Shown here: one piece after another, positions 1 to 45,602 of the stretch | How the letters are laid out: each line of letters opens with the position of its first letter | Position numbering within the stretch: position 1 is the stretch's first letter | Translations under genes and position numbers: made by a program | Assembly: GCA_011774835.1 (NCBI GenBank) | Contig: JAACAK010000114.1 | Location: 881 to 64,880, forward strand | Direction: 5' to 3' | Source of the DNA: Candidatus Kutchimonas denitrificans | GTDB taxonomy: Bacteria > Gemmatimonadota > Gemmatimonadetes > Palauibacterales > KS3-K002 | Length of the DNA stretch: 64,000 bases | Notes under the pieces: model-generated | Seen by the model: the letters and a program-made list of their open reading frames with translations, nothing else | The model's database searches: none | Told to the model about the DNA's origin: nothing

Positions 1-381
1 CGCATGCTGGCCGGCGGCGGCGGCGTGATATTGAACATGGGCTCGACCAACGCGCTGGTCGGCTATCGCCACTACGCGGACTACAACGCGTCGAAGGCCG
101 GGGTCGTCGAGCTGACGCGGTCGATGGCGCTGGAGCTGGCGCCCAGGGTGCGGGTGAACGCCGTCTGCCCGGGCTACATCCTGACGCCGATGCAGGAGGC
201 CGAGTACACGCCCGAGATGATCGAGGAGGTCAACCGCAAGATCCCGCTGGGCCGACACGGCCGGCCCGAGGAGGTGGCGGCGCTGTTCGCCTTCCTGGCC
301 TCCGACGACGCCGCGTACATCACCGGCCAGGTCTACGTGATCGACGGCGGGGAGACCGCCGGCGGACTCGCTAGTCGGTAG
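1..381 (+). CDS. Short-chain dehydrogenase/reductase (SDR), C-terminal part
   Basis: This is the C-terminal 126 codons of a classical SDR oxidoreductase; the frame is open to the left edge, so the Rossmann glycine motif (TGxxxGxG) lies outside the window. The visible part has the catalytic serine in the strand ending NMGS, the YNASK motif (Tyr and Lys of the Ser-Tyr-Lys triad, 13 residues after the Ser), [12 protein letters not shown] that packs over the nicotinamide, and the typical end [11 protein letters not shown]. Such enzymes are cytosolic and oxidise or reduce an alcohol/ketone with NAD(P)H. The substrate cannot be told from this half. The TAG stop lies within the first bases of a large inverted repeat, and the next gene is convergent. 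Confidence 0.9.
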
Positions 382-444
382 GCAGTGTGCGGTGCGTCGG
401 TGTGCAGTGAAGAACTGCAGACCGACGCACCGCACACTGCCTAC
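378..444. repeat. Family A palindrome: near-perfect 30-bp hairpin between convergent genes
   Basis: Positions 378-401 and 421-444 are exact 24-bp reverse complements. After one mismatch the stem continues for 5 bp (403-407 with 415-419), leaving a 7-nt loop. The arm holds the core GTGTGCGGTGCGTCGGT. The element overlaps the stop codon of the dehydrogenase and ends 2 bp before the stop of the convergent permease gene, so a bidirectional transcription end or mRNA-stabilising hairpin is plausible. There is no run of T after either arm. The same core recurs near 2922, 32838, 33912 and 45494. Confidence 0.9.
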
Positions 445-446
445 TG

Positions 447-2882
447 TTATTCGTGCCGCAGCGCCTCCACCGGGTTCACCCGGGTGGCGCGCCGGGCCGG
501 CACGTAGCAGGCGAGCGCGGCGATCCCGCTCAGTATCACGATCACCGCCGCCAGGACGAGCGGGTCGGCGGCCCCCACACCGTACAGCTGGCTCTGAAGG
601 ACCCGGGCCAGCGCCACCGCGACCAGAACGCCGACGACGATGCCCAGCGCCGCCAGCCGCATCCCCTGCCCCAGCACGAGCCTCAGCACGTCGGCGGCCC
701 GGGCACCGATGGCGACCCGGACGCCGATCTCCTGGGTCCGGCGGCTGACCGCGTAGGCGATGACGCCGTAGATCCCCACGGCGGCGAGAACGAGCGCGAT
801 GAGCGCGAACAGGGCCATGAGCCAGGTGGAGAAGCGTGCACGGGCGAGCGACTCGCCCAGCACCTGCTCCATCGTCATGACGTCGTAGATGGGCACGGCC
901 GAATCGTACTCGTGAATCGCCGCGCGCGCGGCGCCGAGGGCCGCGTCCGGCCGCACGTCGCTGGAGACGACCAGCGACATGCTGCGAGACTGTGGGAACT
1001 GGGCGTAGGCCACGTAGATGCTGGGGTTGGGATCGTCCCGCAGACTGGCATGCCGGACGCCGGTGACCACGCCGACGATCCGGAACCACCGGCCGGGGAA
1101 GCCGATGCGCCGACCGATGGGGTCCACGCCGGCGAAATGCTGGCGGACGAAGGCATCGTTGACCACCACCACCGGCTCCGCGTCGGGACCGTCGGCGGCG
1201 GTGAACCCGCGGCCCTGTCGGAGCGGCACCCCCATCGCCTGGAAGTAGGTGGGCGTGACCACCGCGAAGTTGACCGTCCGGTTCTCACCTTCCGGGATGT
1301 CTGATTCGCCTTCCTTCAGAAACGACGTGCCGCCCCGGTCCGCGGCGAGCGGGACCTCCGAGACGAACCCGGCGGCCGCGATCCCCGGCGCGGCGTTGAG
1401 GCGCTCCTCCAACTCCCCGTAGGCAGTGATCAGGCTCGCCCGATCCTCGTAGCGTGAACTGGGGAGCGTGACCCGCATCGTGACCCGGTCCATAGCCTCG
1501 AACCCGGTCTCCACACCCCGCAGGTTGACGAAACTCTCGAGCAGCAGGCCGGCGCCGACCAGCAGCACCAGCGAGAGCGCCACCTCGGCGACCACCAGAC
1601 CCGAGCGCAAGCGGGAGCCGGCGCCGCCACCTGCCTGGCCGCGACCGCCCTCGCGCAACCGTTCGCTCAGGTTCTCGGTGATGCCCTGGAAGGCGGGCGC
1701 CAGCCCGAACAGGACACCGGTGAGGATCGAGACGATCAGCGTGAAGGCGAGGACCCGACTATCGAGTCCGACTTCGTGGAGCCGCGGGATGTCTTGCGGC
1801 GCCAGCTGGACCAGCAAGCGGGCGCCGAAGACGGCGATGATCAGACCGGCGATGCCGGCGATGGCCGACAGGCCGATGCTCTCGGTGAGCAGCTGGCGCA
1901 CGAGACGGCCCCGTTCGGCCCCCAGCGAGGCACGCAGCGCGAACTCCCGGACCCGGGTCGTGCCTCGGGCGAGCAGCAGGTTGGCGACGTTGACGCAGGC
2001 GATCAGCAGCACCAGGCCGACGGCGCCCAGGAGGATCAGCAGCTGGATGCGGGCGTCGCCCAGAACCTGATGGTCGAAGGGCGTCAGCACGACGTCCCAA
2101 CCGGCGTTGCTCGACGGGTACTCTTGCTGCAGGCGGCGGGCGATGGTGCTCAGCTCGGCCTCCGCCTCCGCCAGCTCCACACCGGGCTCGAGCCGGGCGA
2201 TGACGTTCATGAAATGAGCGCCCCGGTTGCCACCCGCCATCTCCATGGCGAACGGTATCCAGAATTCCGTCGGCTCGGTGGGGATCGCACCTTCCAGCAC
2301 GATGGGCGGCGGAAACTCGAAATCGGGGGGCATGACGCCGATCACACTGTAATTCGTACCGCCCAGTCGGATCGATCGCCCGATGATCTCCGGATCGGCG
2401 CCGAAGCGATTCTCCCACATCGCGTGGCTGAGGATGATTACGGGATCGGCGTCCGGCCGATCGTCCGCCGCCGTGAAGCTCCGGCCGATCCGCGGCGTGG
2501 CCCCGACCACATCGAACATGCTCGCGGTGACCTCGGCGCCGCGGACGAGCTGCGGGGTGCCGTCTGCCTCGAAGACGAGCCGTGTCCAGGCGAACGCGCC
2601 CATATCGTCGAACACGCTGTTCGAGCCGCGCCAGTCGGCGTAGTTCGGCGGCGCGGCGTACATGTACGGCAGGCCGCGCTCCAGGTTCTGCTCCCAAACC
2701 ACCACCAACCGATCGGGCTCGCGGTACGGGAACGGCCGCAGCATGACGCCGTTGACCACCGAGAAGATCGCGCTGGTCGCCCCGATGCCGAGGGCGAGTG
2801 TGAGAACCGCCGTCGCGGTGAAGCCCGGGCTTCGGCGAAGCATCCGGACGCTGTAGCGCAGGTCCTGCCAGAGACTGATCAT
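447..2882 (-). CDS. ADOP-family orphan permease (FtsX/MacB-like)
   Basis: An 811-residue inner-membrane protein built as a tandem duplication of the MacB-type half permease: about residues 20-245 periplasmic core 1, 280-400 FtsX-like helices, 425-640 core 2, 690-805 FtsX-like helices. Roughly eight membrane segments are visible, the first near 21-45 (TLALGIGATSAIFSVVNG). The N-terminal DLRYSVRMLRRSPGF and the length match the acidobacterial duplicated orphan permease (ADOP) family, common in Acidobacteriota and Gemmatimonadota. These proteins resemble MacB/LolE-type mechanotransmission permeases but usually lack an ATPase partner next door, as here. The substrate is unknown; lipoprotein, peptide or drug extrusion are guesses. 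It lies downstream of the propeller lipoprotein gene, separated by a repeat. Confidence 0.9.
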   Translation of the reverse strand: MISLWQDLRYSVRMLRRSPGFTATAVLTLALGIGATSAIFSVVNGVMLRPFPYREPDRLVVVWEQNLERGLPYMYAAPPNYADWRGSNSVFDDMGAFAWTRLVFEADGTPQLVRGAEVTASMFDVVGATPRIGRSFTAADDRPDADPVIILSHAMWENRFGADPEIIGRSIRLGGTNYSVIGVMPPDFEFPPPIVLEGAIPTEPTEFWIPFAMEMAGGNRGAHFMNVIARLEPGVELAEAEAELSTIARRLQQEYPSSNAGWDVVLTPFDHQVLGDARIQLLILLGAVGLVLLIACVNVANLLLARGTTRVREFALRASLGAERGRLVRQLLTESIGLSAIAGIAGLIIAVFGARLLVQLAPQDIPRLHEVGLDSRVLAFTLIVSILTGVLFGLAPAFQGITENLSERLREGGRGQAGGGAGSRLRSGLVVAEVALSLVLLVGAGLLLESFVNLRGVETGFEAMDRVTMRVTLPSSRYEDRASLITAYGELEERLNAAPGIAAAGFVSEVPLAADRGGTSFLKEGESDIPEGENRTVNFAVVTPTYFQAMGVPLRQGRGFTAADGPDAEPVVVVNDAFVRQHFAGVDPIGRRIGFPGRWFRIVGVVTGVRHASLRDDPNPSIYVAYAQFPQSRSMSLVVSSDVRPDAALGAARAAIHEYDSAVPIYDVMTMEQVLGESLARARFSTWLMALFALIALVLAAVGIYGVIAYAVSRRTQEIGVRVAIGARAADVLRLVLGQGMRLAALGIVVGVLVAVALARVLQSQLYGVGAADPLVLAAVIVILSGIAALACYVPARRATRVNPVEALRHE

Positions 2883-2921
2883 GGGGAAAGGTCACCTGGT
2901 CTGAGGGTTCAAATGGCTTCG

Positions 2922-2956
2922 GTGTGCGGTGTACTGCATACCGACGCACCGCACAC
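2922..2956. repeat. Family A palindrome between propeller and permease genes
   Basis: Ten-bp exact inverted arms (GTGTGCGGTG at 2922-2931, complement at 2947-2956) with a 15-nt loop. Read on the minus strand, the right part carries the same core GTGTGCGGTGCGTCGGT followed by ATGCAGT as the elements at 378 and 45494. It fills most of the 84-bp gap between two minus-strand genes. Confidence 0.8.
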
Positions 2957-2966
2957 AGCAAACCGT

Positions 2967-4868
2967 TCATCTGTGGTCGGCAGCGATGCCGATTCCGTAT
3001 TCGGCGACGCGCCGCACTCCCTCGTAGCGATCCCTGGGCAGCGGCTCGAAGGTGCCCCAGACGAAGACGAACCCGGAGCCCGGCGGTCCGCCGTAGGCCT
3101 TCACCCAGGCGGAGGCGTCGCCCTTCTCATCCAGCGCCAGCACGGTCGTCACGCCCGGGGCCTCGATCCCCGAGACGCCGACCCACCAGTCGGCGAGCCC
3201 CCAGCGTCGGCCCTCGTGGGTCGGGAACGCGCCGTACCGATCCACGTTGTAGCCGTCGAGATCGATGTCGAGCAGGGCCGCCGGCCGTCCGCGATCGACA
3301 CCCGTGATCCGACCCTCGGCGTTGCGGGCCACCATGAGCGGCGGCAGGCCCAGCCAGACGATCTTGCCCCCGGCATCCAGGTACCGCCTGGCGAGGACGG
3401 TATCCGACGGCAGCGGGGCGACCGTGGCCGGCAAATCGTCCATGGCGAATACGATCACGCTGGGCGCTCCGTCCTCTATGGATGCCTGCATGAAGCTCGA
3501 CAGTTGGAACCGGTCCACGACCTCGTAGCCGAAAGAACCGAAGTAATCGCGGACCCGCTCGTGTCCGGCCAGGGTGTTCCACCCCTCCCGCTCTTCGTCC
3601 CAGTACACGGCGCGCCGTGGCGGCGGCCCGGCCTCGAGCCGTACCGCGTAGACGCCGCCGTCGTCGCAGCCGACGTAGATGCGGCCGCTGGCGACGACAG
3701 CGGAGGAGGTGATGGCGGCGTTCAGCCTGAGCTCCCAGCTCAGAGCACCGCTATCGGCATCGAGGGCCAGGAAGCGGCCGGCATGGTTGCCCACATAGGC
3801 GATGTCGCTGGCCAGTGCGGGCGACGCGAAGACCCGGTTGCCCGTGACGAACCGCCAGACCTCGGCGCCCGTCGCCAGGCTGAGGGCGTGTACATAGAGA
3901 CCGTCGGACGAGCCGACGATGGCCATACTGTCGAAGACGGCCGGAGAGGACACCACCCAGGGCATCCCGTTGTCGTAGCGCCAGCGAAGCTCGCCCGACG
4001 CGACATCGACGGCGTAAAACTTCCCATCCCGGGACCCGAACAGGACCGTCCCGTCGGCCACGGCAGGTGACGACTGGATCGTCTTGCGGTCGAAGCCGAA
4101 CTCGGCGGAGCTCAGATCGACACCCTCGGTGGCGAAGCGCCAGCGCGTTTCGCCGCTCTCGAGGTCGATGGCGTAGAGGAAGCCGTCGGCGCTGCCCACA
4201 TAGGCGTTGCCGTCGGCCACGGCGGCCGATGATCGGACCCGACCGCCCGTAGCCACGCGCCAGCGTTCCGCGCCCGTCTCCGCATCGAAGGCGTAGACGT
4301 TGCCGTCGCCCGACCCGACGATCACCTGGTCTCCCGCGACAACGGGCGACGACGTGATGTAGTCCCATCCCTCGTCCCCCCAGGCCCATGGGTGGTCGCT
4401 TCCCGTCTCCACCTTCCAGCGCAAGCGCCCGTCGCGACGGTCGAGGGCGTAGAACGCGTTCGACCGATCGCCGAAATAGACGAGATCGCCACGAGCCGCG
4501 GCGGATGAATGGATCGGGCCGGCCGCCGAGAAGCGCCATCGCTCGTGACCGGTCCCCCGATCGATGGCGTAGAAGTTCCCGTCTCCGCTGCCGATATAGA
4601 CCAGCTCCGAGTCCACCAGCGCCGACGCGCGCACTGGCCCCTCGGTTTCGAAGCTCCACTCGATCACGCCGCGGCCGGCGGGGCCGGACGGCGCATAGAC
4701 GCCCTGCCCTCGCGGGCCACCCCGGAACTTCGCATCGATGCCGGGCAGCGGCGCCTCGGTACAGGCGTGGGCGGTAAGCATGGCAAGCGACAGCACCAGC
4801 GCGTGCGCTCGACGCCGGCGCGCGATCGGCCGGACGGCACGGGCCGTGGTCGTTCCCGAGTCGTTCAT
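2967..4868 (-). CDS. PQQ-type beta-propeller lipoprotein with C-terminal amidotransferase-like domain
   Basis: A 633-residue exported protein. I chose the ATG at 4868 because GGGAGG stands about 6 nt upstream; an in-frame start at 4913 would add 15 residues without a good ribosome site. The N-terminus has RRRR, a hydrophobic stretch and a possible lipidation Cys36 (TAHAC, an imperfect lipobox). Seven PQQ/PQQ_2-type blades follow, each with the pattern [50 protein letters not shown], closing a propeller over about residues 60-400. The last 200 residues look like an alpha/beta domain related to ThuA/class I amidotransferases ([21 protein letters not shown]). This propeller type can be a scaffold (as in BamB) rather than a true PQQ enzyme. 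Function unknown. Confidence 0.8.
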
Positions 4869-5004
4869 CGCGTCCCTCCCTTCGGAACGGCCTCCGTTCG
4901 CGCCCCCGCGCAACGCCCTGCGCTCCGGTCGGTGCAGGGTCCCGGATTCTGACGTACCGCCGAACCGTACGCAACCGCAGCTGGATTGGATTCACTGGCT
5001 GGAG

Positions 5005-5033
5005 CAGACACGGTCCGGTAAGGGAGCTATCTT
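5005..5033 (+). promoter_or_regulatory. Candidate sigma70-type promoter for the enolase-superfamily gene
   Basis: CAGACA at 5005-5010, a 17-bp spacer and TATCTT at 5028-5033, each 4 of 6 to consensus. It would give a leader of about 80 nt before the ATG at 5119. It lies in the 250-bp gap between divergently transcribed genes. Prediction by eye only. Confidence 0.3.
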
Positions 5034-5118
5034 GACACCGGCGCAAGCCACCGCCGTCGCGTACCCGGAGCAGAAGCGTCCCGATCGCGCCGGCCAGCTT
5101 CAACACGTACCACGAGCC

Positions 5119-6225
5119 ATGAAGATCACGCGAATCGCCGCCTATCGAGTCGAACTGCCGTTGCACGAAGGAAGCTACAGATGGTCCGGCGGCAAGTCGG
5201 TGGAGGTCTTCGACAGCACGGTCGTACGGATCGAGACCGACGCCGGCCTGGCCGGCCACGGCGAGATCTGCCCACTGGGTCCCTTCTACCTGCCGGCCTA
5301 CGCGGCGGGCGCCCGGACCGGCATCGCCGAGCTGGCGCCGCACCTGTTGGATGAAGACCCGACGAAGCTGGCGCGGCTGAACCGCCGCATGGACGCGGCG
5401 CTGCAAGGCCACCCTTACGTGAAGTCGGCCATCGATATGGCGTGCTGGGACATCCTCGGCCAGGCGGCGGGTTTCCCGGTCTGCGAGCTGCTGGGCGGCC
5501 GTTACGGCAGCGACTTCGTGCTCTACCGGGCGATCTCGCAGGGCGAGCCGGACGAGATGGCGAAAAGCGTCGCCGGCTATCGCGCTGAGGGCTACCGCCG
5601 CTTCCAGCTGAAGGTCGGCAGCGATGTGGAGACCGATATCGCCCGGATCCGGGCGGTGAGCGAGGCGCTGGAGCCAGGCGACGTGGTGGTGGCGGACGCG
5701 AACACCGGATGGCTGCCGCACGAGGCGGCCCGCGTCGTCCGGGGCGTGCGGGATGTGGATATCTATATCGAACAGCCTTGCGCCACCTACGAAGAGTGTC
5801 TGTCGATCCGGCGGCGCACCGACCATCCGTTCGTTCTCGACGAGATCATCGACGGGATCCCGATCCTGCTGCGCGGTCACGCCGATGGGGCGATGGACGT
5901 GGTGAACATCAAGATCAGCAAGTTCGGCGGCCTGACGAAGGCGCGGCAGGCCCGTGATCTGTGTGTCGAGCTGGGGATCGCGATGACGATCGAGGACAGC
6001 TGGGGCGGCGACATCGTCACCGCCGCCATCGCCCACCTGGCCCACAGCACGCCGCCGCAGTTCCTGTTCACCGCGACCGACTTCAACAGCTACGTCACCG
6101 TGAGCATCGCGGACGGCGCGCCGCAGCGGGCAGGCGGCCGGCTGAGCGCCTCGTCGGAGCCAGGGCTCGGGGTGCGGCCGCGGATGGAGGTGTTGGGCGA
6201 GGCGGTTTTCAGCAGTGAGAGGTAG
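5119..6225 (+). CDS. Mandelate racemase/muconate lactonizing enzyme family protein (enolase superfamily)
   Basis: A 368-residue cytosolic enzyme of the enolase superfamily. The start chosen is [15 protein letters not shown], the usual N-terminus of this family; upstream sequence in the same frame is non-coding in character. A capping domain (about 1-120) is followed by the modified TIM barrel: FQLKVG carries the first catalytic Lys region, ADANTGW, IEQPC and VLDEII supply the three acidic Mg2+ ligands, and NIKISKFGG gives the second Lys. The Lys/Lys arrangement fits the muconate lactonizing subgroup, for example proline-derivative epimerases or dehydratases such as hydroxyproline-betaine epimerase or cis-3-hydroxyproline dehydratase. 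Motifs alone cannot separate these, so no symbol is given. It stands alone in its transcription unit. Confidence 0.85.
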
Positions 6226-6230
6226 CTGAA

Positions 6231-6272
6231 CATCCAACATCCAACGTCCAACCTCCAACGTCCAACGTCCGA
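6231..6272 (+). repeat. Perfect heptamer array (six CNTCCAA units)
   Basis: Six uninterrupted 7-bp units right after the stop codon of the enolase-superfamily gene: CATCCAA, CATCCAA, CGTCCAA, CCTCCAA, CGTCCAA, CGTCCGA. The same words appear inside other repeats, as CCTCCAA near 8337 and 43018. The rest of the 161-bp gap up to 6386 contains no clear promoter. Confidence 0.85.
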
Positions 6273-6386
6273 ATCAACCTTCATTCCTCACCGCCGCCAT
6301 CGCCATCTGTGCAACGATTCTGGACCCACGCGTCTCCATGGCTGAGCGACCCGCCAGGAGACGTGTAACGGGAAGGAGCGAGAATC

Positions 6387-8108: not shown

Positions 8109-8109
8109 G

Positions 8110-8375
8110 GATTCCCGATTCGGGATTCAGGTTTTGATATCGGGAGTTCGGGATTGGTTATTCAGGGGTTCGGGGTGGACGGGAAGTGGGGAATGATAGG
8201 TGGGGAGTTGGGAATGGGAAGCGGGGAGTGAGCGCGCTACCTCCCGATCCCCGAATCGCCTTCCGCTTCCCAGATTCCCGCCTTCCCCGAATCACCGAAT
8301 CCCCGAATGTACAATCCCGAACTCCCGAACTCCCGACCTCCAACCTCCCAATATCGATTCCGAACTCGGGATTCC
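8110..8375. repeat. Family B: whole-gap imperfect palindrome made of GGGATTCGGG / CCCCGAAT words
   Basis: The entire 266-bp gap between two convergent genes folds on itself. The left half is G-rich, with words such as GGGATTC, GGGAGTTC and GGGGAAT; the right half is the C-rich counterpart, with CCCCGAAT, CACCGAAT and CCCGAACT. The longest exact pairing is 17 bp (8140-8156 with 8312-8328), and pairing goes on inward with few mismatches, for example GGGAAGCGG near 8216 with CCGCTTCCC near 8262. No open frame here looks coding. Related words occur at 14519-14560, 27663-27844 and 42999-43129. Confidence 0.8.
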
Positions 8376-8942: not shown

Positions 8943-8970
8943 GACTCGATCACCTCTCGCTCGGGCTCGC

Positions 8971-19436: not shown

Positions 19437-19440
19437 GACT

Positions 19441-30048: not shown

Positions 30049-32667
<2,619 letters not shown>

Positions 32668-32685
32668 CCTGTCGCCACTTCCTCA

Positions 32686-32707
32686 GAACATATTCGAGAA
32701 AATATTC
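32686..32707 (-). promoter_or_regulatory. Tandem decamer in the clpB leader
   Basis: Two copies of a 10-bp word, GAACATATTC (32686-32695) and GAAAATATTC (32698-32707), 12 bp apart centre to centre, 19 to 40 bp before the clpB ATG. On the coding strand these read GAATATNTTC. A repressor or RNA-level control site is possible; it does not match CIRCE or the sigma32 consensus. Confidence 0.45.
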
Positions 32708-32755
32708 GCACGAACGTCGGACCGCGTCGCCAGCCGGCGCTACGGCGGACGTTCG

Positions 32756-32784
32756 CTTGTAGTCTTCTATCCACCATTAGTAAA
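32756..32784 (-). promoter_or_regulatory. Candidate clpB promoter
   Basis: Minus strand TTTACT (32784-32779), 17-bp spacer, TACAAG (32761-32756), each 4 of 6. It would give a leader of about 80 nt holding the tandem decamer. Confidence 0.3.
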
Positions 32785-32834
32785 GGCAACAGGCGTGCCA
32801 CGGAATCACTGCCACTTTGGCATATGAGGGGGCC

Positions 32835-32952
32835 CAGTGTGCGGTATGCGGTGCGTCGGTGGGCGGAAGGTACCGGTTATGCGGCAGGCGGTGTGCGGTG
32901 GCCGGACTCGATCCCAGCCACCGCATACCGGCACACGGCACACCGCATACCG
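32835..32952. repeat. Family A palindrome between clpB and hsp20
   Basis: A long imperfect palindrome, with GTGTGCGGTATGCGGTGCGT at the left, CGGTGTGCGGTGGCCGG in the middle left pairing with CCAGCCACCGCATACCG, and GGCACACCGCATACCG at the right end. It stops 1 bp before the stop codon of the downstream-reading hsp20 gene. The word GTGCGTCGGT links it to the elements at 378 and 45494. Confidence 0.8.
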
Positions 32953-33342
32953 TTACTCGACCGAGACCTTCCGGGTTTTCTCGCTGGCGGCCTTGGGGAG
33001 GGTGACGGTGAGCACGCCGCCTTCCATGTGGGCCGAGATGCGATCGCGGTCGAAGTTGGTGCGAAGTCGGAAGCGACGGTAGTACCCCCAGGGTAACGCG
33101 CTCTCGGCCTCGGCGCGGCCGGCGACGGGCGCCTCAATGACCAGATCATCGCGCTCGATGGTGATGTCGAGGTCGCTCTTGTGAACGCCCGGCAGATCGC
33201 CGACCACGACCATGTCGGATTCGGTGGAGTAGATGTCGACGTTGGGTCGAACGAAATTGCGCCGCCGGAAGTGTTCTGCCCGCTGCTCTTTGGGGGAAAC
33301 GGTGCTCTCGACGTCGCGGAGCTCGTCGCGTTCGCCGTTCAT
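32953..33342 (-). CDS. Small heat-shock protein (Hsp20/alpha-crystallin)
   Basis: A 129-residue ATP-independent holdase. The start at 33342 has GGAGGAG 8 nt upstream and lies 1 bp after the stop of the other hsp20; a frame extending 34 codons further is rejected. The alpha-crystallin domain covers about 30-125: VDIYSTESDMVVVGDLPGVHKSDLDITIERDDLVIEA, the strand pair GYYRRFRLRTNFDRDRISAHMEGGVLTVTLPKA with the A/G-x-L-like core GVLTVTLP. It lacks a clear C-terminal IxI motif (ends RKVSVE). Confidence 0.93.
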   Translation of the reverse strand: MNGERDELRDVESTVSPKEQRAEHFRRRNFVRPNVDIYSTESDMVVVGDLPGVHKSDLDITIERDDLVIEAPVAGRAEAESALPWGYYRRFRLRTNFDRDRISAHMEGGVLTVTLPKAASEKTRKVSVE

Positions 33343-33343
33343 C

Positions 33344-33898
33344 TCAGATCTCCTCCCCGGTGCCGGCGCCCGGATCGGCCTTCGGGGTCTCCTGACCGGG
33401 ACTCGCGCCGCCTGTTCCGGGCTCGCGCCTGACCTCGGTCTCACCGCTGGCCTCGTCGACCGACTCGATATCGATCGGGCGGCCGCGCCCGCGCGTCTTG
33501 GGCAACTTGATCTCGAGTATCCCCTCGCGCATCTGGGCGACGACGCCCAGAGCGTCTACGTCGGCGGGGAGCCGGATCGACAGGTCGAATTTGCCCGAAG
33601 GCCGCTCGCTGCGGAGCAAGCGGGCGCCCGCGGGCGGCTCGAACTTTTTCCGCTCGCCCGCCACGCTCAAGTTGCGGCCGGCGACGGAGACGTCGACCGC
33701 TTCGCGGCTGAACCCCGGCAGCTCGACCTGCACGCGGTAGCCGTCGTCCTCGACGATCAGCTCGTGTCGCGGCCATTCGGGGCGGATCCCGAAATCGGGC
33801 GCCATGCCGACCACGGAATCGACGAGGTTCCCCACGGCCTCCTTCAGCTCGGCCAGTGCGCCGCGGCCTGACGATTTCTCAGAGCTCTTCTCGTTCAC
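33344..33898 (-). CDS. Small heat-shock protein (Hsp20/alpha-crystallin), second copy
   Basis: A 184-residue protein. The start is the second of two GTG codons, at 33898, with AGGAGG 5 nt upstream. The alpha-crystallin domain is near 40-130 (HELIVEDDGYRVQVELPGFSREAVDVSVAGRNLSVAGE, GKFDLSIRLPADVD, REGILEIKLPK), followed by IDIES (an I-x-I motif) and a long Gly/Glu/Pro-rich tail. It sits 1 bp from the next hsp20. Two diverged paralogs in tandem probably form mixed or distinct oligomers. Confidence 0.92.
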   Translation of the reverse strand: MNEKSSEKSSGRGALAELKEAVGNLVDSVVGMAPDFGIRPEWPRHELIVEDDGYRVQVELPGFSREAVDVSVAGRNLSVAGERKKFEPPAGARLLRSERPSGKFDLSIRLPADVDALGVVAQMREGILEIKLPKTRGRGRPIDIESVDEASGETEVRREPGTGGASPGQETPKADPGAGTGEEI

Positions 33899-33911
33899 CA
33901 CAACCTCCTGC

Positions 33912-34016
33912 TCGGTATGCCGTGTGCGGTGCGCCGGTTTGCGGAGATCATCGGTGTACGGTCCTGGACCTCGTCCACATCCACCGCGCACCGATGCACC
34001 GCACACTGCACACCGG
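33912..34016. repeat. Family A palindrome upstream of the hsp20 pair
   Basis: GTGTGCGGTGCGCCGG (33922-33937) pairs with CCGATGCACCGCACAC (33991-34006), 14 of 16 positions, with a loop of about 50 nt that holds further weak inverted words (CATCGGTGTACGG and CCACCGCGCACCGATG). It fills the 146-bp gap between hsp20 and the RDD gene, so it would be in the 5' leader of the hsp20 operon if the promoter lies upstream. Confidence 0.8.
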
Positions 34017-34044: not shown

Positions 34045-35199
34045 CTACGTTCCCCCGCCCTCCCAGTTTCGACCCGGTCCCGATTCCCGGACGACGACCG
34101 TGGAAGCGATCCGGTCCTGCATCGCCTGTCGGTTCTCATCCCAGAACATCTCGAGGAAGCCGAGCAGGCCGGTGAAGACCGAAGCGGCGTAGCCGCCAAA
34201 CCGGTTGAGCGCGGGCCACCAGCCCAACGGCTCGGCATCGAGCCGCACGATCCGTATGCCCATCAGTCGCTTGCCTGGCGTGCGGCCGCCCCAGAACAGC
34301 GGGAACAGAGTGAAATAGAGGGCCGACCAGCCGATGTCGATCCCGACCTCGTTCGCCACCCTCAGGATCAGATTAAGCAGCCCACGCTCCTCTTCCGCTT
34401 CCAGCTCGTTCCGCAGCTCCCGGTTGTCCTCCTCGAGCCGTTCGTTGCGTCGCTGGAGCCGATCGATCCGATCGGCGGCCAGGCCCGCGGTCAACGGCTC
34501 GCGCAGCTCGGCGATGCGGGCCGAATCGTTCGCCTGCAGCGCGGCGGCGTACGCGAGTGCCAGGGAGTCGGGGTCGGCGCGGACTTCGTCAGCCTCGCGG
34601 TCGAGGGCGGAGAGTAGCGCTTCCCGGGCCCACTCCTCCTCGCGCTCCGCGGCTATCGCCTCGATGGTTTCCTCGATCTTGGACCGGGAAACACCCAACC
34701 GCTCGAGCCGGGCCACCAGCGACTCGGACCGGCTCCTCAGCTCTTCCGGCGTGCTGGCCGATTCGATCGCCGCGGCGTCGGCCCCCACCTGCACCGCTTC
34801 GAAGATCTCCGGGTTCGCCACCTCGGAAGCGGCGCGATCCCTGGCCATCTCTGTCAGACCCGGGATGGCGCCGAAACCGGAGTAGAACTGGACGGCCGCG
34901 ATCAGCGTGGCGATCCCGGCCAACACGGCCAGCGAACCGAAGATCGCCCAGCGACCGCCTTTCCGCAGCCGATCCGCCGCCGGACGTAGCGCGGCCCGTA
35001 CGGCCAACACGGTGACCGCCAGAAACAACAGAAGCCAGGAGAGTCCGAGGCTCGTGACGATGCCGATGATCGACAGGTCCACCCCCATGGCCACACCCCG
35101 GCGCCACGGCCGGGCGAGGGGTGTTCCCAGCAGCTCGTCCGCCACCGAGAAAGCGTCCGGCGTGATGATCTCTTTCGGATCGTACTGGCGGTCGGGCAT
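34045..35199 (-). CDS. RDD-family membrane protein with inserted coiled coil
   Basis: A 384-residue membrane protein. The first RDD part (RPWRRGVAMGVDLSIIGIV) and two spans near 45-68 and 83-106 are followed by about 150 residues of charged helix (AIAAEREEEWAREALLSALDREADE and DRIDRLQRRNERLEEDNRELRNELEAEEE, a leucine-type coiled coil), then a further span and the closing RDD core LFWGGRTPGKRLMGIRIVRLD ending in DRIASTVVV. Ordinary RDD proteins are about 150 to 250 residues, and the insert is uncommon. Some RDD proteins act as Na+/H+ antiporters; here function is unknown. Confidence 0.8.
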   Translation of the reverse strand: MPDRQYDPKEIITPDAFSVADELLGTPLARPWRRGVAMGVDLSIIGIVTSLGLSWLLLFLAVTVLAVRAALRPAADRLRKGGRWAIFGSLAVLAGIATLIAAVQFYSGFGAIPGLTEMARDRAASEVANPEIFEAVQVGADAAAIESASTPEELRSRSESLVARLERLGVSRSKIEETIEAIAAEREEEWAREALLSALDREADEVRADPDSLALAYAAALQANDSARIAELREPLTAGLAADRIDRLQRRNERLEEDNRELRNELEAEEERGLLNLILRVANEVGIDIGWSALYFTLFPLFWGGRTPGKRLMGIRIVRLDAEPLGWWPALNRFGGYAASVFTGLLGFLEMFWDENRQAMQDRIASTVVVRESGPGRNWEGGGT

Positions 35200-35202
35200 G
35201 GG

Positions 35203-39422: not shown

Positions 39423-40498
39423 CTCACTCGGCCCTGCTGCTCGGCCTGGCCGGCTGCGGCGACACGCTGATCATCACCGGCGACGCCCCCGGCGTCATGC
39501 GCATTGTCGCCGGGGTCCCGGAGGTCGCAGGCGACAGCCTGGGCGAGCGGGCCACGGAGAGCCTGCTCCACGAGCCGAGCGGTGTGGCCGCCGGCGCGGA
39601 CGGGACGCTGTACCTGGCCGACAGCAGGAACGCGCGGGTGCTGCGGATCCGGCCGGACGGCAGAGCCCAGGTCGTGATCGATCACGGCGACCGCTCGCGG
39701 GAGCCCCAGCTCCGCCGGCCCGGCGGTCTGGCTCTGGACAGCGTCGGCGGCCTGCTGGTGGCGGACCCCGAGGGCGGCCGGGTCTGGCGTATCGAGCTGG
39801 AGAGCCGGGACGCCATGCCGGTGGCCGGGACCGGCGGTGCAGCCTCCGGTGACACGACCCGGGCGCTGGAGACCGAACTCGAGGCGCCGGCCGGAGTCGC
39901 CGCCGGGGCCGACGGCGCCTTCTACGTTTCGGAACGTTCGGGTCATCGCGTTCGCCGCGTCGGGGCCGACGGGTCGATCGCCACCATCGCCGGGGACGGT
40001 ACGCCGGGCTTCGCCGGGGACGGCGGCGGCGCCTCTGACGCACGGCTCGACGCGCCGCAAGGCCTCGCCCTCGCCGGTGAGGTCCTCTACGTCGCCGACA
40101 GCGGCAACCAGCGGGTGCGGGCTATCGATCTCGTGAACTCGACGATCTCCACCGTGGCCGGCTCCGGCGGCACCGGATTCGGCGGTGACGGTGGGCCAGC
40201 GGTCGACGCCCTGCTCAACGATCCGGTGACGCTGACGGTCACGGCGGACCGACAGGTACTGTTCGTCGCCGAAACGGGCAACGACAGGGTCCGCTCGGTA
40301 CGGCTGGACTCGGGGGTGATCACCACCTTCAGCGGGACCGGCGCGTCCGAGTTCCAGGGCGACTTGCTGAGCGCCGCCGTGACGCCGCTGCCCGACCCCC
40401 GGGGACTCGCCGCCTCGCCTTTCGACATCCTCTTCGTCTCGGTCGCCGGCCACCACATCGTCTATCGCACGGCGCTCGGGCTGCTGCTCATCCCGTAG
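39398..40498 (+). CDS. NHL-repeat beta-propeller lipoprotein
   Basis: A 366-residue lipoprotein. I start it at ATG 39398, inside the end of the PD40 gene, because this gives a signal peptide with a perfect lipobox LAGC (Cys20). At least five NHL blades follow: LHEPSGVAAGADGTLYLADSRNARVLRI, LRRPGGLALDSVGGLLVADPEGGRVWRI, LEAPAGVAAGADGAFYVSERSGHRVRRV, LDAPQGLALAGEVLYVADSGNQRVRAI, LNDPVTLTVTADRQVLFVAETGNDRVRSV, giving a six-bladed propeller. Interspersed GTPGFAGDGG-type turns are typical. Role: protein or ligand binding, not known. Confidence 0.85.
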   Translation: MGHHARALAHSALLLGLAGCGDTLIITGDAPGVMRIVAGVPEVAGDSLGERATESLLHEPSGVAAGADGTLYLADSRNARVLRIRPDGRAQVVIDHGDRSREPQLRRPGGLALDSVGGLLVADPEGGRVWRIELESRDAMPVAGTGGAASGDTTRALETELEAPAGVAAGADGAFYVSERSGHRVRRVGADGSIATIAGDGTPGFAGDGGGASDARLDAPQGLALAGEVLYVADSGNQRVRAIDLVNSTISTVAGSGGTGFGGDGGPAVDALLNDPVTLTVTADRQVLFVAETGNDRVRSVRLDSGVITTFSGTGASEFQGDLLSAAVTPLPDPRGLAASPFDILFVSVAGHHIVYRTALGLLLIP

Positions 40499-40513
40499 CG
40501 GCCATGGCGCCGC

Positions 40514-40542
40514 TTGACATGCCGGGCGCGCCGGCCTAGGCT
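40514..40542 (+). promoter_or_regulatory. Promoter for the OPT transporter gene
   Basis: A perfect -35 TTGACA (40514-40519), exactly 17 bp, then TAGGCT (40537-40542). TTGACA-17-TAGGCT is a strong form in high-GC bacteria. It gives a start near 40549 and a leader of about 100 nt. This separates the transporter from the upstream propeller genes. Confidence 0.6.
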
Positions 40543-40652
40543 GACGCGGCTTCACTAGCTCTACCCAACCAGCACAAGCACGACGGTGGCCGCGGGCGTG
40601 GGCCGTCCGCCGCCGCCGATTCGAGGCGAATCCCCAGACCAGGAGGCCCTCG

Positions 40653-42623
40653 ATGGACCCCAAACCGCACAAGCCTTACGTGCCGGCGGATACCCGAATG
40701 ACCGAGTTCACGCTGAGAGCCGTGGTCCTCGGCGTGGTCATGGCCGTGATCCTGGGCGCCGCCAACGCGTACATCGGCATGGTGGCTGGCCTGACGATCG
40801 CCGCCACCTTCCCGGCGGCCGTCGTGGCGATGGCCGTCCTGCGACCGATGGCCGGGACGATCCTGGAGGAGAACATCGCCCGAACCACGGCATCGGTGGG
40901 CGAGGCGCTGGTGGCGGGCGCCATCTTCACCATCCCCGCCTTCGTGATCGCCGGGGTGTGGGAGACGGTGAACTTCTGGATCTCGGCGTTCATCATGCTG
41001 GTGGGCGGCGTGCTGGGTGTCCTGTTCGTGATCATCCTGCGGCGCACGCTGGTGGAGGACGCGGGGCTGCCCTTCCCGGAGTCGGTGGCGGCGGGCGAAA
41101 TCCACAAGGCGGGCCAGGCCGGGGCGACCGGCGGGAAGTACCTGGTGCTGGCCGGCGTGACGGCGGGCTTCATCGAGCTGATCAAAAACGCTTCGGGCCT
41201 GCGGGTCCTGGCCTCGAACATGGCCGGATTCTGGTCCTGGGGATCGACCCGGATCGGCCAGGGGGCGGCGTTGCCGGAGCCCTACACCGGCGGCATCTAC
41301 ATGTCGACGCCGTCTGCATCGCCGGCGTTGCTGGGCGTGGGTTACATCATCGGCCCGCGCCTTTCCGCCGTCGTGTTCGCCGGCGGCGTGCTGGGCTGGT
41401 GGTGCCTGGCCCCGGTGATGGCTTTCGTCAACCGGGACCTGATCGGGTTGGCCGAGACCCAGGGGTGGAGCTTCGCGATGGTGAACGTCGTTTGGCAGTC
41501 GATGGTCCGGCCGCTGGCGGTGGGCACCATGGTGGTCGGCGCGGTGTGGACGCTGTGGAGCATGCGGACCAGCCTGCTCACCGGGCTGGGACGGGTGCTG
41601 GCCGACGTGAAGCAGGTGAAGGGGGGGATGCAGGTGGAGAACCGCCTGGAGCTCGATCTGCGCTACCGCTACATCGTCTGGGGCATCATCGGCCTGATCA
41701 TCCCGATCTGGATCCTCTACTATTACTTCAGCCAGAGCTTCGGCGGCTCGCTGCTGGCGGCCGTCGTGATGGTGATCGCGGGCATTCTGTTCGCCGCCGT
41801 GGCCGGCTACCTGGTGGGCGTGATCGGCAGCAGCAACAACCCGATCAGCGGACTGACCCTGACCACCCTGATCCTGGCCGCGCTGCTCATGGTGGCCATC
41901 GGCCTCACCGGCGACCGGGGCGTGCTGGCGGTGCTGGGCGTCGCCGCGGTGGTCTGCTGCGCCATGGGCATCGCCGGTGACATGATGCAGGACCTGAAGG
42001 TCGGGCACATCCTGGGCGGTACGCCGGCCTCGATGCAGAGGGGCGAGCTGATCTCGGTCGTTTTCGCGGCGCCGGCGCTGGCCGGCGCGCTGCTGCTCCT
42101 GGGTAAAGCCTACGGGTTCGCCGGGGCGCCGGGCGCCGACCCGGCCACGGCGCTGCCGGCGCCGCAGGCGGGCCTGATGGCGCTGGTCAGCCAGGGGATC
42201 GTGGGCGGCGAGATGGTGTGGCCGCTCTTCCTGGCGGGGATGCTGTTCGGCGTCATGCTGATCCTGGTCCGATCGCCGTCGCCGATGCTCGTGGCGGTAG
42301 GCATGTACCTGCCCATCTACAGCACGTTCGCGATCTTCGTCGGCGGTGTCTTCAAGTGGATCGTCGATCGCATGTTGGCGCGCAAACGTTATACGGCGGA
42401 GCAGCTGGAGCGGGCCAACAACACCGGTATCCTCGTCGCCTCGGGCTTCGTCGCCGGCGAGGCCTTGATGGGCGTGCTGATCGCAGGGCTGATCGTCGCC
42501 AACTTCTCGCTGCCGACCATCGTCAGCGATCCGCTCTGGCAGGGTCTGCTCGGCTTGTTGATCTTCCCGCTGGTGCTGTGGTTCTTCCACCGCTTCTCGA
42601 ACGCCGAGGCCGCTTCCGCGTAG
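40653..42623 (+). CDS. OPT-family oligopeptide transporter
   Basis: A 656-residue inner-membrane protein with about 14-16 spans. The N-terminal FTLRAVVLGVVMAVILGAANAYIGMVAGLTIAATFPAAVVAM, then LPFPESVAAGEIHKAG and the repeated motif IGSSNNPISGLT are those of the prokaryotic OPT (oligopeptide or metal-siderophore) transporters. They carry peptides or iron-chelate substrates with protons; the substrate here is unknown. It has its own promoter and shares a 1-bp stop/start overlap with the small lipoprotein after it. Confidence 0.93.
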   Translation: MDPKPHKPYVPADTRMTEFTLRAVVLGVVMAVILGAANAYIGMVAGLTIAATFPAAVVAMAVLRPMAGTILEENIARTTASVGEALVAGAIFTIPAFVIAGVWETVNFWISAFIMLVGGVLGVLFVIILRRTLVEDAGLPFPESVAAGEIHKAGQAGATGGKYLVLAGVTAGFIELIKNASGLRVLASNMAGFWSWGSTRIGQGAALPEPYTGGIYMSTPSASPALLGVGYIIGPRLSAVVFAGGVLGWWCLAPVMAFVNRDLIGLAETQGWSFAMVNVVWQSMVRPLAVGTMVVGAVWTLWSMRTSLLTGLGRVLADVKQVKGGMQVENRLELDLRYRYIVWGIIGLIIPIWILYYYFSQSFGGSLLAAVVMVIAGILFAAVAGYLVGVIGSSNNPISGLTLTTLILAALLMVAIGLTGDRGVLAVLGVAAVVCCAMGIAGDMMQDLKVGHILGGTPASMQRGELISVVFAAPALAGALLLLGKAYGFAGAPGADPATALPAPQAGLMALVSQGIVGGEMVWPLFLAGMLFGVMLILVRSPSPMLVAVGMYLPIYSTFAIFVGGVFKWIVDRMLARKRYTAEQLERANNTGILVASGFVAGEALMGVLIAGLIVANFSLPTIVSDPLWQGLLGLLIFPLVLWFFHRFSNAEAASA

Positions 42624-42988
42624 TGCCGAGCGCGGGACGCGGGCGCAGGCCGAACCGGGTGCTGGGGGTCGTGCTGGCCCTGGGCACCCTTCTGGCTGCT
42701 GTGGGGTGCCCGGACCGGGAGCCCGGGCCGATCAGCCGCGAGGAGTACATCGACGCGTACGTCAGGATCCTGCGTGCGGCGGAAGCGGCGCCCGACACGG
42801 CCGCGGCCAGCGACAGCGCGCGCCGGATACTGGCCGAGCGCGGCCTGACGGAAGACGACCTGATGGAGTTCGCGGAAAGCTACGTCGAGGATCCCACTGA
42901 GCTGGCACGCATCTGGGAAAAGATCGAAGAACGGCTCAAGCAGCCCGCGGACACCGGGGCCGGCAGCCAACAGCCCGGGAGGAGGTAG
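42623..42988 (+). CDS. Small lipoprotein after the OPT transporter
   Basis: A 121-residue protein beginning with GTG in a TAGTG overlap with the transporter stop. A basic start (RGRRPNR), hydrophobic stretch and lipobox AVGC place the lipidated Cys at 29. The mature 90 residues are acidic and helical: ISREEYIDAYVRILRAAEAAPDTAAASDSARRILAERGLTEDDLMEFAESYVEDPTELARIWEKIEERLKQP. This resembles the DUF4296-type helical lipoproteins seen in Bacteroidota and Gemmatimonadota. Whether it assists the transporter is not known. Confidence 0.7.
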   Translation: MPSAGRGRRPNRVLGVVLALGTLLAAVGCPDREPGPISREEYIDAYVRILRAAEAAPDTAAASDSARRILAERGLTEDDLMEFAESYVEDPTELARIWEKIEERLKQPADTGAGSQQPGRR

Positions 42989-42998
42989 GCCGTCCGGC

Positions 42999-43129
42999 GA
43001 GAATGCCGCCTACCGCAACCTCCAACCTCCCCGAATCCCCGAACCCCGGAATCCCCGAATCCGGTTCGACGATTCGGAGAGAACTCGAGATTCCCCAAAT
43101 CAGAATCCCGAAATCCGAGTTAGGGATTC
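42999..43129. repeat. Family B repeat between convergent lipoprotein and Nif3-like genes
   Basis: Contains CCTCCAACCTCC, then CCCCGAAT, CCCCGAAC, CCCGGAAT, CCCCGAAT (43030-43061). A 7-bp stem CCGAATC/GATTCGG (43056-43078 region) and an 8-bp pair GGAATCCC/GGGATTCC (about 43048 and 43122) add inverted structure. It joins the heptamer words of the 6231 array with the family B words. Confidence 0.75.
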
Positions 43130-43894
43130 CTACAGTCCCGTAGGATGATCCACGAACCGCCACTCCAATGCGAACCTCTCCGCCACGTGGGCGGCCAGCG
43201 CCTTCACTCCCAGCGTCTCGGTGGCGTAGTGGCCGGCATAGAAGACGTTGATCCCCCACTCCTCCGCATCGAAGTAGGTATAGTGCGCGCCCTCGCCGGT
43301 GATGAACGTATCGAGCCCGGCGTCCCGCGCCTGGCCGATCAATCCGCCGGCGCCGCCGGTGACCACGCCCACCTGACTCACCCGTTCCGGGCCGCCGGGG
43401 ATCACGAACGGATCGACGCCGAGTAGCTCCGCTAGCCGCCGCTCCACTTCCTGCCGGTCCGCTTCCGTTGCGCCCCGGTAGCCGATCTCGCGCCCCTCGT
43501 ACTCGCCGAACGGCTTCAGCTCCTGCAGTCCGATCCCCCGCGCCAGTTCCGCGTTGTTCCCCACCTCGAGGTGCGCGTCCAGCGGAATATGTGACGAATA
43601 GACGGCGATATCGTGCTCGATGAGCGGCTTGATCCGACGATAGGCGCGGCCGGTGAGCGGCGTCACCCCCGGCCCCCAGAAGAGGCCATGGTGCACGATC
43701 ATCAGGTCGGCGCCCAGCTCGACCGCGGCGTCGATCGTCGCCTGGCACGCGTCGGTACAGGCGACCACGTTACTCACTCTCCCGTTGTTTTCGACCTGCA
43801 GGCCGTTGTGGGCGCCGGGCGCGTCCGAATAGTCGGCGATATTGAGGTAGCCGTCGAGATAAGCGACCAGTTGATCGAGCTCGACTGCGGCCAT
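43130..43894 (-). CDS. Nif3-like dinuclear metal centre protein (DUF34)
   Basis: A 254-residue protein of the Nif3/YbgI family, which forms toroid hexamers with a two-metal site. Conserved motifs: APGAHNGLQVENNGRVSNVV at the start, DLMIVHHGLFWG (metal His-His), AVYSSHIPLDAH (His), and near the end ITGEGAHYTYFDAEEWGINVFYAGHYATETLGVKAL (GHYxTE). The biochemical role is unsettled; annotations as GTP cyclohydrolase are weakly based. It follows guaA by 3 bp and is the last gene of the housekeeping run. Confidence 0.9.
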   Translation of the reverse strand: MAAVELDQLVAYLDGYLNIADYSDAPGAHNGLQVENNGRVSNVVACTDACQATIDAAVELGADLMIVHHGLFWGPGVTPLTGRAYRRIKPLIEHDIAVYSSHIPLDAHLEVGNNAELARGIGLQELKPFGEYEGREIGYRGATEADRQEVERRLAELLGVDPFVIPGGPERVSQVGVVTGGAGGLIGQARDAGLDTFITGEGAHYTYFDAEEWGINVFYAGHYATETLGVKALAAHVAERFALEWRFVDHPTGL

Positions 43895-43897
43895 CGG

Positions 43898-45451
43898 TCA
43901 CTCCCACTCGATGGTGGCCGGCGGCTTCGAGCTCACGTCGTAGCAGACGCGATTCACCCCGGCCACCTCGTTGATGATTCGGGTGGCGATGCGGCCCAGC
44001 ACATCGTGCGGAAACGGGAACCAGTCGGCGGTCATGCCGTCGCGGCTGGTCACCGCGCGCAGCGCGATGACGTTCTCGTAGGTGCGGCCGTCGCCCATCA
44101 CGCCGACGGTGCGCACCGGCAGCAGCACGGCGAAGGCCTGCCAGATCTCGTCGTAGAGGCCGGCGGCGCGGATCTCCTCCAGGTAGATCGCGTCGGCTTC
44201 CCGCAGTACCTCCAGGCGCTCGCGGGTCACCGCGCCGAGGACGCGAACGGCGAGCCCGGGGCCGGGGAACGGATGCCGTCCGACCAGCTCCTCGGAGAGG
44301 CCGAGCTCGCGCCCCACCTGGCGCACTTCGTCCTTGAACAGCTCGCGGAGCGGCTCGATCAACTCGAACGGCAGCCGCTCCGGCAGGCCGCCGACGTTGT
44401 GGTGCGTCTTGATCGTGGCCGACGGGCCCCGCACCGAGAGCGACTCGATCACGTCGGGGTAGAGCGTGCCCTGCACCAGGAAGGCGACGTCGTCGCCGAT
44501 CGCCCGCGCCTCCTCCTCGAACACGTCGATGAACGTATGGCCGATGACGCGGCGCTTCTGCTCCGGTTCCTCGACACCCTCCAGCTGGGTCAGAAAGCGG
44601 TCGGCGGCGTCGACCCTCCGCAGCTCGATCCCCAGGTGCTGTCGAAACGTCCGGGCCACCCAGGCCGCCTCGCCTTTTCTCAGCAGGCCGGTATCGACGA
44701 AGATGCAGGTCAACCGGTCGCCCACGGCGTGGTGGACCAGGGCCGTGGCGACGGAGGAGTCAACGCCGCCGGACAGCGCCGCGATGACCCGGTCGCGCTT
44801 GCCGACCTGCTCGCGGATCGCGGCGACCTGGCTCTCGATAAACGATCCGGCGGTCCAGCTGGGCTCGCAGTCGCAGATCCGGAACAGGAAGTTGGCCAGC
44901 ATATCGCTGCCGCGGGCGGTGTGGGCGACCTCGGGATGGAACTGAAGGCCGTAGATCGGCCGGTCGATGGCGCGGAACGCGGCGATGGGCACGGTCTCGG
45001 TGGCGCCCAAGACCTCGAAGCCGGGCGGCGGCCTCTCGACCCGGTCGCCGTGGCTCATCCACACCGTGGACCGCTCGCCGGGCGCGAAGCCAGCGAACAG
45101 CTCGTCGGGCTGGGTGACCTCGAGCTCGGCGCGGCCGTATTCGCGTCGGGCCGAGCCGGTCACCGCGCCCCCGGACTCCTGAGCGATCAGCTGCATGCCG
45201 TAGCAGATGCCGAGGATCGGCAGCTCCAGCGAGAGCAGCTCCACGTCCAACGTCGGCACGTCCTCGCCGTAGACGCTGGCGGGGCCGCCCGAAAGGATCA
45301 CGCCGCTCGGCGCCCAGTCCCGCAGCCAATCGATCGACCGGGTGGGCGGATGGATCTCGCAGTAGACACGCTCTGCGCGGACCCGGCGCGCGATCAGCTG
45401 GGTGTACTGAGAGCCGTAGTCGAGGATGAGGATTCTGTCTTTCGGAAGCAT
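43898..45451 (-). CDS. guaA: GMP synthase (glutamine-hydrolysing)
   Basis: A 517-residue enzyme that converts XMP to GMP. The class I amidotransferase domain (1-200) has nucleophile Cys83 in GICYGMQ and the His/Glu pair in QFHPEVAHT. The ATP pyrophosphatase domain has the PP motif SGGVDSS starting at Ser227. The C-terminal dimer domain ends with the usual [16 protein letters not shown]. Full length and a standard sequence. Together with purH and purN it covers a good part of purine synthesis in this window. Confidence 0.97.
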
Positions 45452-45493
45452 TACTCAGTCAGCTGCATCAAGTGCACGGATCGTATCCAGTTG

Positions 45494-45602
45494 CGGTGTG
45501 CGGTGCGTCGGTATGCAGTGGGTGACGGGGCCGGCGGCTGTCGTGACGGTCACCGCAACTCCCTGCATACCGCATACCGGCGTGCCGCATACAGCACACC
45601 GG
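45494..45602. repeat. Family A palindrome between proS and guaA
   Basis: GGTGTGCGGTGCGTCGGTAT begins the left arm at 45496; CGGTATGCAG (45509-45518) pairs exactly with CTGCATACCG (45563-45572), and the outer GGTGTGC pairs with GCACACC at 45594-45600. It also has GGTGAC/GTCACC inside. It fills the 151-bp gap between two minus-strand genes and stops at the stop codon of proS. Confidence 0.85.

What the first reader, a model, noticed from the sequence alone, without database searches (positions are those of the whole stretch)
378..45602. A dispersed family of structured intergenic elements with the core GTGTGCGGTGCGTCGGT
Five gaps in 64 kb (378-444, 2922-2956, 32835-32952, 33912-34016, 45494-45602) carry variants of one core word, each time arranged as an inverted repeat. 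Loci 1, 2 (reverse strand) and 5 share the core nearly base for base followed by RTGCAGT. The elements vary in length but keep the palindrome, abut stop codons, and none carries a gene. They could be non-autonomous palindromic elements (REP/MITE-like) or a lineage-specific transcription-end or mRNA-stability signal.
Basis: seen in the sequence. Interest (0 to 1): 0.7.

Follow-up and report, generated by a model that had tools for sequence, protein, structure and literature searches.

The report
Dispersed hairpin repeats of seven-base units
Short DNA palindromes built from a repeated seven-letter word sit just behind the stop codons of ordinary genes in this bacterium, and related bacteria carry the same architecture spelled with a different genome-wide 'accent', so they look like tiny self-spreading DNA repeats and not like RNA stop signals.

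Summary
The core has 8 hits in the window (0.48 expected), all non-coding, and about 70 genome-wide. It belongs to a palindromic element of about 45-118 bp whose arms are arrays of a 7-nt unit, here CGGT[A/G]TG with one conserved 8-nt unit. Exact copies are absent from relatives. A covariance model finds the same architecture in three other genera of the family, spelled CGGTRGC, CGGTRGT or CGGTAYT. The general pattern, CRGT-N3 arrays facing their complement, occurs patchily in the phylum (17/295 and 25/298 genomes in two overlapping samples). At 14 and 12 orthologous gene ends two family members have no element; the nearest relative has one at 10/16 with changed spelling. In one distant relative 29 aligned copies share an asymmetric loop and ends in unrelated flanks. 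Elements abut stop codons (median 3 nt), often in register with the unit. The terminator/mRNA-signal reading fares badly: no U-tract, elements in apparent operon gaps and between divergent genes, and no G.U excess over A.C. Best reading: miniature non-autonomous DNA repeats that spread and homogenise within genomes; mobilising enzyme unknown, no RAYT found. Known relatives: cyanobacterial and Beggiatoaceae heptamer repeats, REP/MITE elements. New variant of a known kind.

The parts
376..446 (.). Element 1, full palindrome, arms 376-410 and 412-446, fills the gap between convergent SDR (+) and FtsX/MacB-type permease (-) genes; the first unit CGGTAG carries the SDR stop codon
   Evidence: z -13.0; 77 bits
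2920..2965 (-). Element 2, short degenerate copy, one full arm (2931-2965, minus) and a truncated partner; 1 nt behind the stop of the minus-strand gene 2967-4868
   Evidence: 29 bits; z -1.6
32835..32952 (.). Element 3, arms 32835-32869 and 32918-32952 with extra units in the loop; directly behind the stop of the HSP20 gene (32953-33342, minus)
   Evidence: 64 bits; z -5.6
33913..34015 (.). Element 4, arms 33913-33947 and 33981-34015; 29 nt behind the stop of the RDD-domain gene (34045-35199, minus) and 11 nt from the start of the next gene
   Evidence: 71 bits; z -5.4
45487..45601 (.). Element 5, arms 45487-45521 and 45567-45601 (second arm diverged); 1 nt behind the stop of prolyl-tRNA synthetase (45603-46952, minus), upstream of GMP synthase
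   Evidence: 58 bits; z -2.0

Best explanation
These are copies of a miniature, non-coding, non-autonomous repeat that spreads at the DNA level. Each full copy is a palindrome whose two arms are arrays of a 7-nt unit, C-R-G-T-R-x-x (here CGGTRTG, with one conserved 8-nt unit CGGTGCGY). Copies lodge in intergenic gaps, most often directly behind a stop codon, where they do least harm; the unit itself (TAG, TGA or TAA inside CRGTRRx) can serve as the gene's stop. Units are gained, lost and homogenised within a genome, so each lineage has its own spelling of the two variable letters while the CRGT frame, the 7-nt step and the inverted layout stay. Shown: the family, its architecture, its intergenic location, the lineage-specific spelling, absence at orthologous sites in relatives, and dispersed copies with fixed ends in a related genome. 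Inferred: that copying uses an unidentified transposase or recombination route, and that slippage plus exchange between copies causes the homogenisation.
For: Family. Same architecture with another spelling in three other genera of the family: (G000 GTG/ATG; G001 GGC/AGC; G006 GGT/AGT; G002 ACT/ATT). General CRGT-N3 hairpin pattern: 17/295 and 25/298 genomes in two overlapping samples, reversed control in few, none in the 35 sister-family genomes. Element absent at the orthologous sites of G001: 14 in G004, 12 in G003; present at 10/16 in congener G006 with changed units, including one site with a conserved loop. Dispersal: genome G270 has 30 exact and about 30 one-mismatch hits of an asymmetric loop word (reversed control 6); 29 copies share termini (...GGCGTTTGCGGT / ACGCC.TT) and conservation falls to background outside about 90 bp. 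Loops resemble each other above shuffles in G000 and G001. DNA-level rather than RNA-level: sense-strand mismatches G.U 73 vs A.C 96, against 94 vs 71 in ordinary hairpins after stops, Fisher p 0.016. Location: 50 of 67 facing gene ends within -21..+20 nt, median 3; facing gene starts median 64.
Against: No transposase, target-site duplication or excision product was found. No pair of very close strains was available, so no clean empty site with an exact boundary was seen for this genome. The strongest dispersal evidence comes from a distant relative (G270), linked to this element by architecture only. The strong stop-codon register (24/50 against 1/7 expected, p 1e-8) is more exact than simple tolerance of insertions would predict. 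Arms within an element resemble each other more than arms of other elements, which could also come from selection on structure. The gene calls are home-made, and the G.U/A.C difference is modest.
Confidence: 0.62

Rival explanations
1. Transcription terminators or mRNA 3'-end stabilisers: the hairpin forms in the transcript behind the stop codon and ends transcription or blocks 3' exonucleases.
For: Long stable hairpins; median 3 nt behind stop codons and mostly 3' of genes; arms within an element match better than arms between elements.
Against: Mean T fraction in the 10 nt after the element is 0.18 and only 2 of 40 have 5 or more T. In G001 elements sit between gene pairs that are separated by roughly 20-36 nt in G003/G004, thus likely operons (pieces 5, 6, 9, 19). 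8 of the ~60 elements lie between divergent genes. No G.U excess in the sense strand. In G270 unit spacers are not paired between arms (12/54 identical, 33% expected).
Confidence: 0.13
2. Arrays of binding sites for a DNA- or RNA-binding protein that reads CRGT every 7 nt; the lineage-specific spelling follows changes in the protein.
For: Strict CRGT frame and 7-nt step across families while the hairpin spacers vary; the whole genome shares one spelling.
Against: No candidate protein; patchy presence within genera (g41: G082 and G135 none, G270 many); no evident link to a class of genes; the sites differ between relatives.
Confidence: 0.12
3. Purely local mutation: heptad arrays arise and grow in place by replication slippage and hairpin template switching, without any element moving.
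For: Unit number varies in 7-nt steps; one-armed arrays exist (pieces 5 and 8 in G006); at piece 12 arrays flank an ancestral sequence shared by three genera; stop codons lie in unit register; 7-nt repeats are generally over-represented in bacteria (PMC4692102, PMC4679880).
Against: Does not explain a shared spelling and a shared 8-nt unit genome-wide, nor the dispersed copies with a fixed asymmetric loop and fixed ends in G270.
Confidence: 0.1
4. Chance or base-composition artefact.
For: GC-rich genome (68%) with many chance near-matches at 3 mismatches.
Against: 8 vs 0.48 expected in the window; up to 84 bits and E 5e-16; reversed control close to zero.
Confidence: 0.01

Closest known systems
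Short tandemly repeated heptanucleotides of cyanobacteria (three in Calothrix; (CCCCAGT)n in Nostoc, PMC4692102)
   Same: 7-nt unit with CAGT inside (CCCCAGT = CAGT-CCC register), intergenic, many copies, several spellings
   Different: Described mainly as direct repeats (some G-quadruplex/i-motif forming); here two opposed arrays make a long palindrome, in a GC-rich CGGT form, behind stop codons
TAACTGA direct repeats of Beggiatoaceae, Cyanobacteria and Bacteroidetes (MacGregor 2015, PMC4679880)
   Same: Heptamer in the same register when read on the other strand (TCAGTTA = CAGT-TAT), intergenic, patchy across phyla
   Different: Almost always direct (one inverted case among 170 sets in the BOGUAY genome) and mostly just upstream of start codons
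REP/REPIN elements and RAYT (PMC3116915, PMC3733652)
   Same: Short palindromes, extragenic, mostly downstream of genes, genome-specific flavours
   Different: No GTAG or CGTC end tag, arms are heptad arrays, no Y1 transposase found in the family
MITEs
   Same: Small non-coding elements with terminal inverted repeats; the G270 copies have sharp ends and a conserved centre
   Different: No parent transposon and no target-site duplication found
Heptad-built P6b stem of the Nostoc tRNA-Leu intron (PMC4476775)
   Same: A stem made of 7-nt repeats that exists in two alternative spellings and gains or loses units
   Different: Inside one RNA gene; motifs TDNGATT / NNTGAGT lack CRGT

Membership tests
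REP (GTAG/CGTC super-families) | 20-40 bp palindrome ending in an unpaired GTAG or CGTC tag | tested here: not met
   Elements about 45-118 bp; arms begin CGGT; CGTC occurs only inside the paired arm
REP (GTAG/CGTC super-families) | Associated Y1 transposase (RAYT) for the GTAG class | tested here: not met
   PF01797 absent in all 8 family genomes incl. G000 at 87% completeness; 6 of 8 other heptad-bearing genomes also lack it, and the two that have it show no arrays within the fetched loci
MITE | Terminal inverted repeats and dispersed copies | tested here: met
   Two arms at about 20 loci in G000; 29 aligned copies with common ends in G270
MITE | Target-site duplication and an autonomous partner with the same ends | tested here: inconclusive
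   No duplication apparent by eye in G270 flanks; partner not searchable without whole genomes
Intrinsic terminator | GC-rich stem followed by a U-tract | tested here: not met
   T fraction 0.18 after the element; 2 of 40 have 5 or more T; no element among the terminator-like sites in 30-48 kb
Heptanucleotide repeats (STRR / TAACTGA kind) | Tandem 7-nt units, intergenic, multiple loci | tested here: met
   Unit spacing 7 in 81, 168, 74 and 50 intervals in four genomes, other spacings rarer (24 of 8 nt in G000)
Heptanucleotide repeats (STRR / TAACTGA kind) | Common descent with the cyanobacterial and Beggiatoaceae repeats | not tested
   Only the shared CAGT register was noticed from published unit sequences
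Described structured RNA family | Match to an Rfam model | tested here: not met
   No family reaches its gathering score in the window

The most novel reading that the evidence does not exclude
CRGT-N3 heptad arrays are one widespread class of bacterial repeat. A specific but unknown trans-acting factor (a transposase, reverse transcriptase or nucleoid protein) reads the two variable letters and rewrites the spelling of all copies in a genome at once, so that orthologous copies at the same stop codon switch flavour in concert between species.
Probability: 0.2. Interest if true: 0.72.

Novelty: new variant of a known kind. Interest (0 to 1): 0.5.

Why it matters
Heptamer repeats have been noted separately in cyanobacteria, xanthomonads and Beggiatoaceae without a known mechanism. 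Here the same register recurs in another phylum as palindromes with lineage-specific spelling, and same-site copies in two congeners show the spelling changing in place. That gives a natural comparison for asking how dispersed short repeats are homogenised without a known transposase. It also warns that such hairpins behind stop codons should not be annotated as terminators by default.

Tried and rejected
Exact-core search in 59 relatives and 85,462 named genomes: nothing outside this genome except one Streptomyces hit, taken as chance; this first suggested a species-specific repeat and was overturned by the covariance model. REP/RAYT link: no Y1 transposase. Terminator: no T-tract. RNA-helix selection: no G.U excess. 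An 'all-frame stop codon' role (TRR every 7 nt gives stops in three frames) fits the G001/G006 spelling but fails here, since CGGTRTG arrays contain no stop (own reading). Integron attC sites were considered because of the stop-codon position; the units lack the attC core words (own knowledge, not searched). Naming the organism failed: own records are withheld in the named collection.

Full report
OBSERVATION. The five loci exist as described. The 17-mer core has 8 hits with up to 3 mismatches against 0.48 expected, all in non-coding sequence although only 7.4% of the window is intergenic. The window is a piece (C18:881-64880) of a 3.76-Mb draft genome in 149 contigs, 87% complete; the core has 69 hits in the genome against 14 for the reversed pattern. 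The repeat is larger than the core: a 35-nt arm, CGGTRTGCRGTRTGCSGTGCGYCGGTRTGCRGTGG, found 56 times in the fetched stretches; one search lists 19 opposed pairs, two of which share an arm. A covariance model of 16 pairs finds these again plus weak copies, best 84 bits. The five window loci are not equal: 1, 3 and 4 are strong hairpins, 5 has one diverged arm, 2 is a short remnant.

ANATOMY. The arm is an array of 7-nt units starting C[A/G]GT. In this genome 81 of the unit intervals are 7 and 24 are 8; the 8-nt unit (CGGTGCGT or CGGTGCGC) has a fixed place in the arm and is also seen, rarely, in genome G001. The variable triplet is mostly GTG or ATG here. Loops vary in length and sequence, though they resemble each other more than shuffles do in G000 and G001.

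DISTRIBUTION. The exact core is absent from 59 relatives and practically absent from 85,462 named genomes, where the own genome is withheld. The covariance model, however, hits three other genomes (two further genera) of the same family: G001 (69 hits counting both strands), G006 (20, same genus as G001) and G002 (15), and none in four further family members. Those hairpins have the same architecture with another spelling: GGC/AGC, GGT/AGT, ACT/ATT. The general pattern of three CRGT-N3 units facing three complementary units occurs in 17 of 295 genomes of the class and 25 of 298 in an overlapping sample of the phylum. It is patchy within genera and absent from the sister family, with the reversed control found in few genomes. 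It also occurs in 79 stretches of viral-collection contigs with many spellings.

SAME SITES IN RELATIVES. I joined the C-termini of 19 G001 genes that end at an element into one query and located their orthologues, then read what follows each stop codon. G004 (14 sites) and G003 (12 sites) have no element. G006, of the same genus as G001, has arrays at 10 of 16 sites, two of them one-armed. At piece 9 both carry the hairpin with a similar loop (aattgggaattc / gattgagaattc), but most units read AGC/GGC in G001 and AGT/GGT in G006: array-level replacement, not tidy pair-by-pair compensation. At piece 12 arrays flank a stretch that is also present in G000. At pieces 5, 6, 9 and 19 the element separates gene pairs that lie about 20-36 nt apart in G003/G004. 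The conserved order and short gap suggest an operon; this is inference.

COPIES THAT MOVED. In G270, from another family of the class, an asymmetric loop word has 30 exact and about 30 one-mismatch hits (reversed control 6). Of the fetched copies, 29 align over about 90 bp with common ends and a conserved centre, and conservation falls to background immediately outside. This is the best evidence that heptad palindromes disperse as units. There the spacers come from a small set (GAG, TGG, TTG) and are not matched between arms (12/54 identical; 33% when arms are shuffled), so full pairing is not what is preserved; the CGGT frame is.

POSITION. With simple codon-usage gene calls (my own script), 50 of 67 gene ends facing an element lie within -21 to +20 nt, median 3; facing gene starts have median 64. 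In 24 of 50 the stop codon falls in unit register (CRG-TRR-N), 7 expected, p 1e-8; for non-overlapping cases alone 11 of 35, p 0.012. Overlapping cases are partly explained by the need to keep a stop; the rest suggests that insertion or growth starts at the stop codon.

RNA OR DNA. If the hairpin acted in the transcript, sense-strand mismatches should favour G.U over A.C. They do not: 73 vs 96, whereas ordinary hairpins behind stops in the same genomes give 94 vs 71, Fisher p 0.016. The elements were chosen without regard to gene strand, so the choice does not bias this test. No T-tract follows the elements. Some elements lie between divergent genes. Arms of one element do match each other better than arms of different elements (0 of 10,000 shuffles; 0 of 500). 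Shared birth and mutual correction of arms explain this as well as selection does.

COMPARISON. By architecture and location these belong with small palindromic extragenic repeats. Features that define REPs (end tag, RAYT) were tested and not met. MITE-like features are met in G270, but the defining transposase and target duplication are not established. The unit register links them to published heptamers: CCCCAGT in Nostoc and TAACTGA in Beggiatoaceae, Cyanobacteria and Bacteroidetes. Descent from a common source is not shown. No paper found in the held library describes such elements in this group; the group itself could not be named, so that search was by guess.

VERDICT. Real, dispersed, and more interesting than first described because of the lineage-specific spelling and the wide CRGT-N3 pattern. 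Most likely miniature DNA repeats that spread and homogenise within genomes, tolerated behind stop codons. Mechanism of movement unknown. A terminator or mRNA role is unlikely as the general function.

Noticed in passing
G000 C117:128918-128990: A hairpin of another spelling (CGGTGAT/CAGTGAT/CGGTAAT) in the same genome, like that of G006, so one genome can hold a minor second flavour.
   Followed up: no
L018 (C121, about 10.6 kb): A tandem of a ~30-nt compound unit (GGTGTGCGGTATGCGGATAGAGATC) next to one arm, as if arms can expand at a second level.
   Followed up: no
G000 contigs: Elements look unevenly spread: six on the 101-kb contig C18 and several on C105, C137, C143, few or none on many others. 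Contig lengths were not all available, so clustering was not tested.
   Followed up: no
L206-L284: 79 stretches of IMG/VR contigs contain CRGT heptad hairpins; a group with GC near 0.62 joins arrays through AAAGGCAAAAGC-like linkers.
   Followed up: partly
G225, G314, G110 and others: The reversed control pattern (GYCA-N3 type heptad hairpins) has a few hits (8, 4, 3), so other heptad words may form similar palindromes.
   Followed up: no
window 30049-33901: A small heat-shock (HSP20) gene and a neighbouring gene of similar size next to a ClpB/ClpC-type AAA+ chaperone gene, with elements 3 and 4 in the gaps.
   Followed up: no
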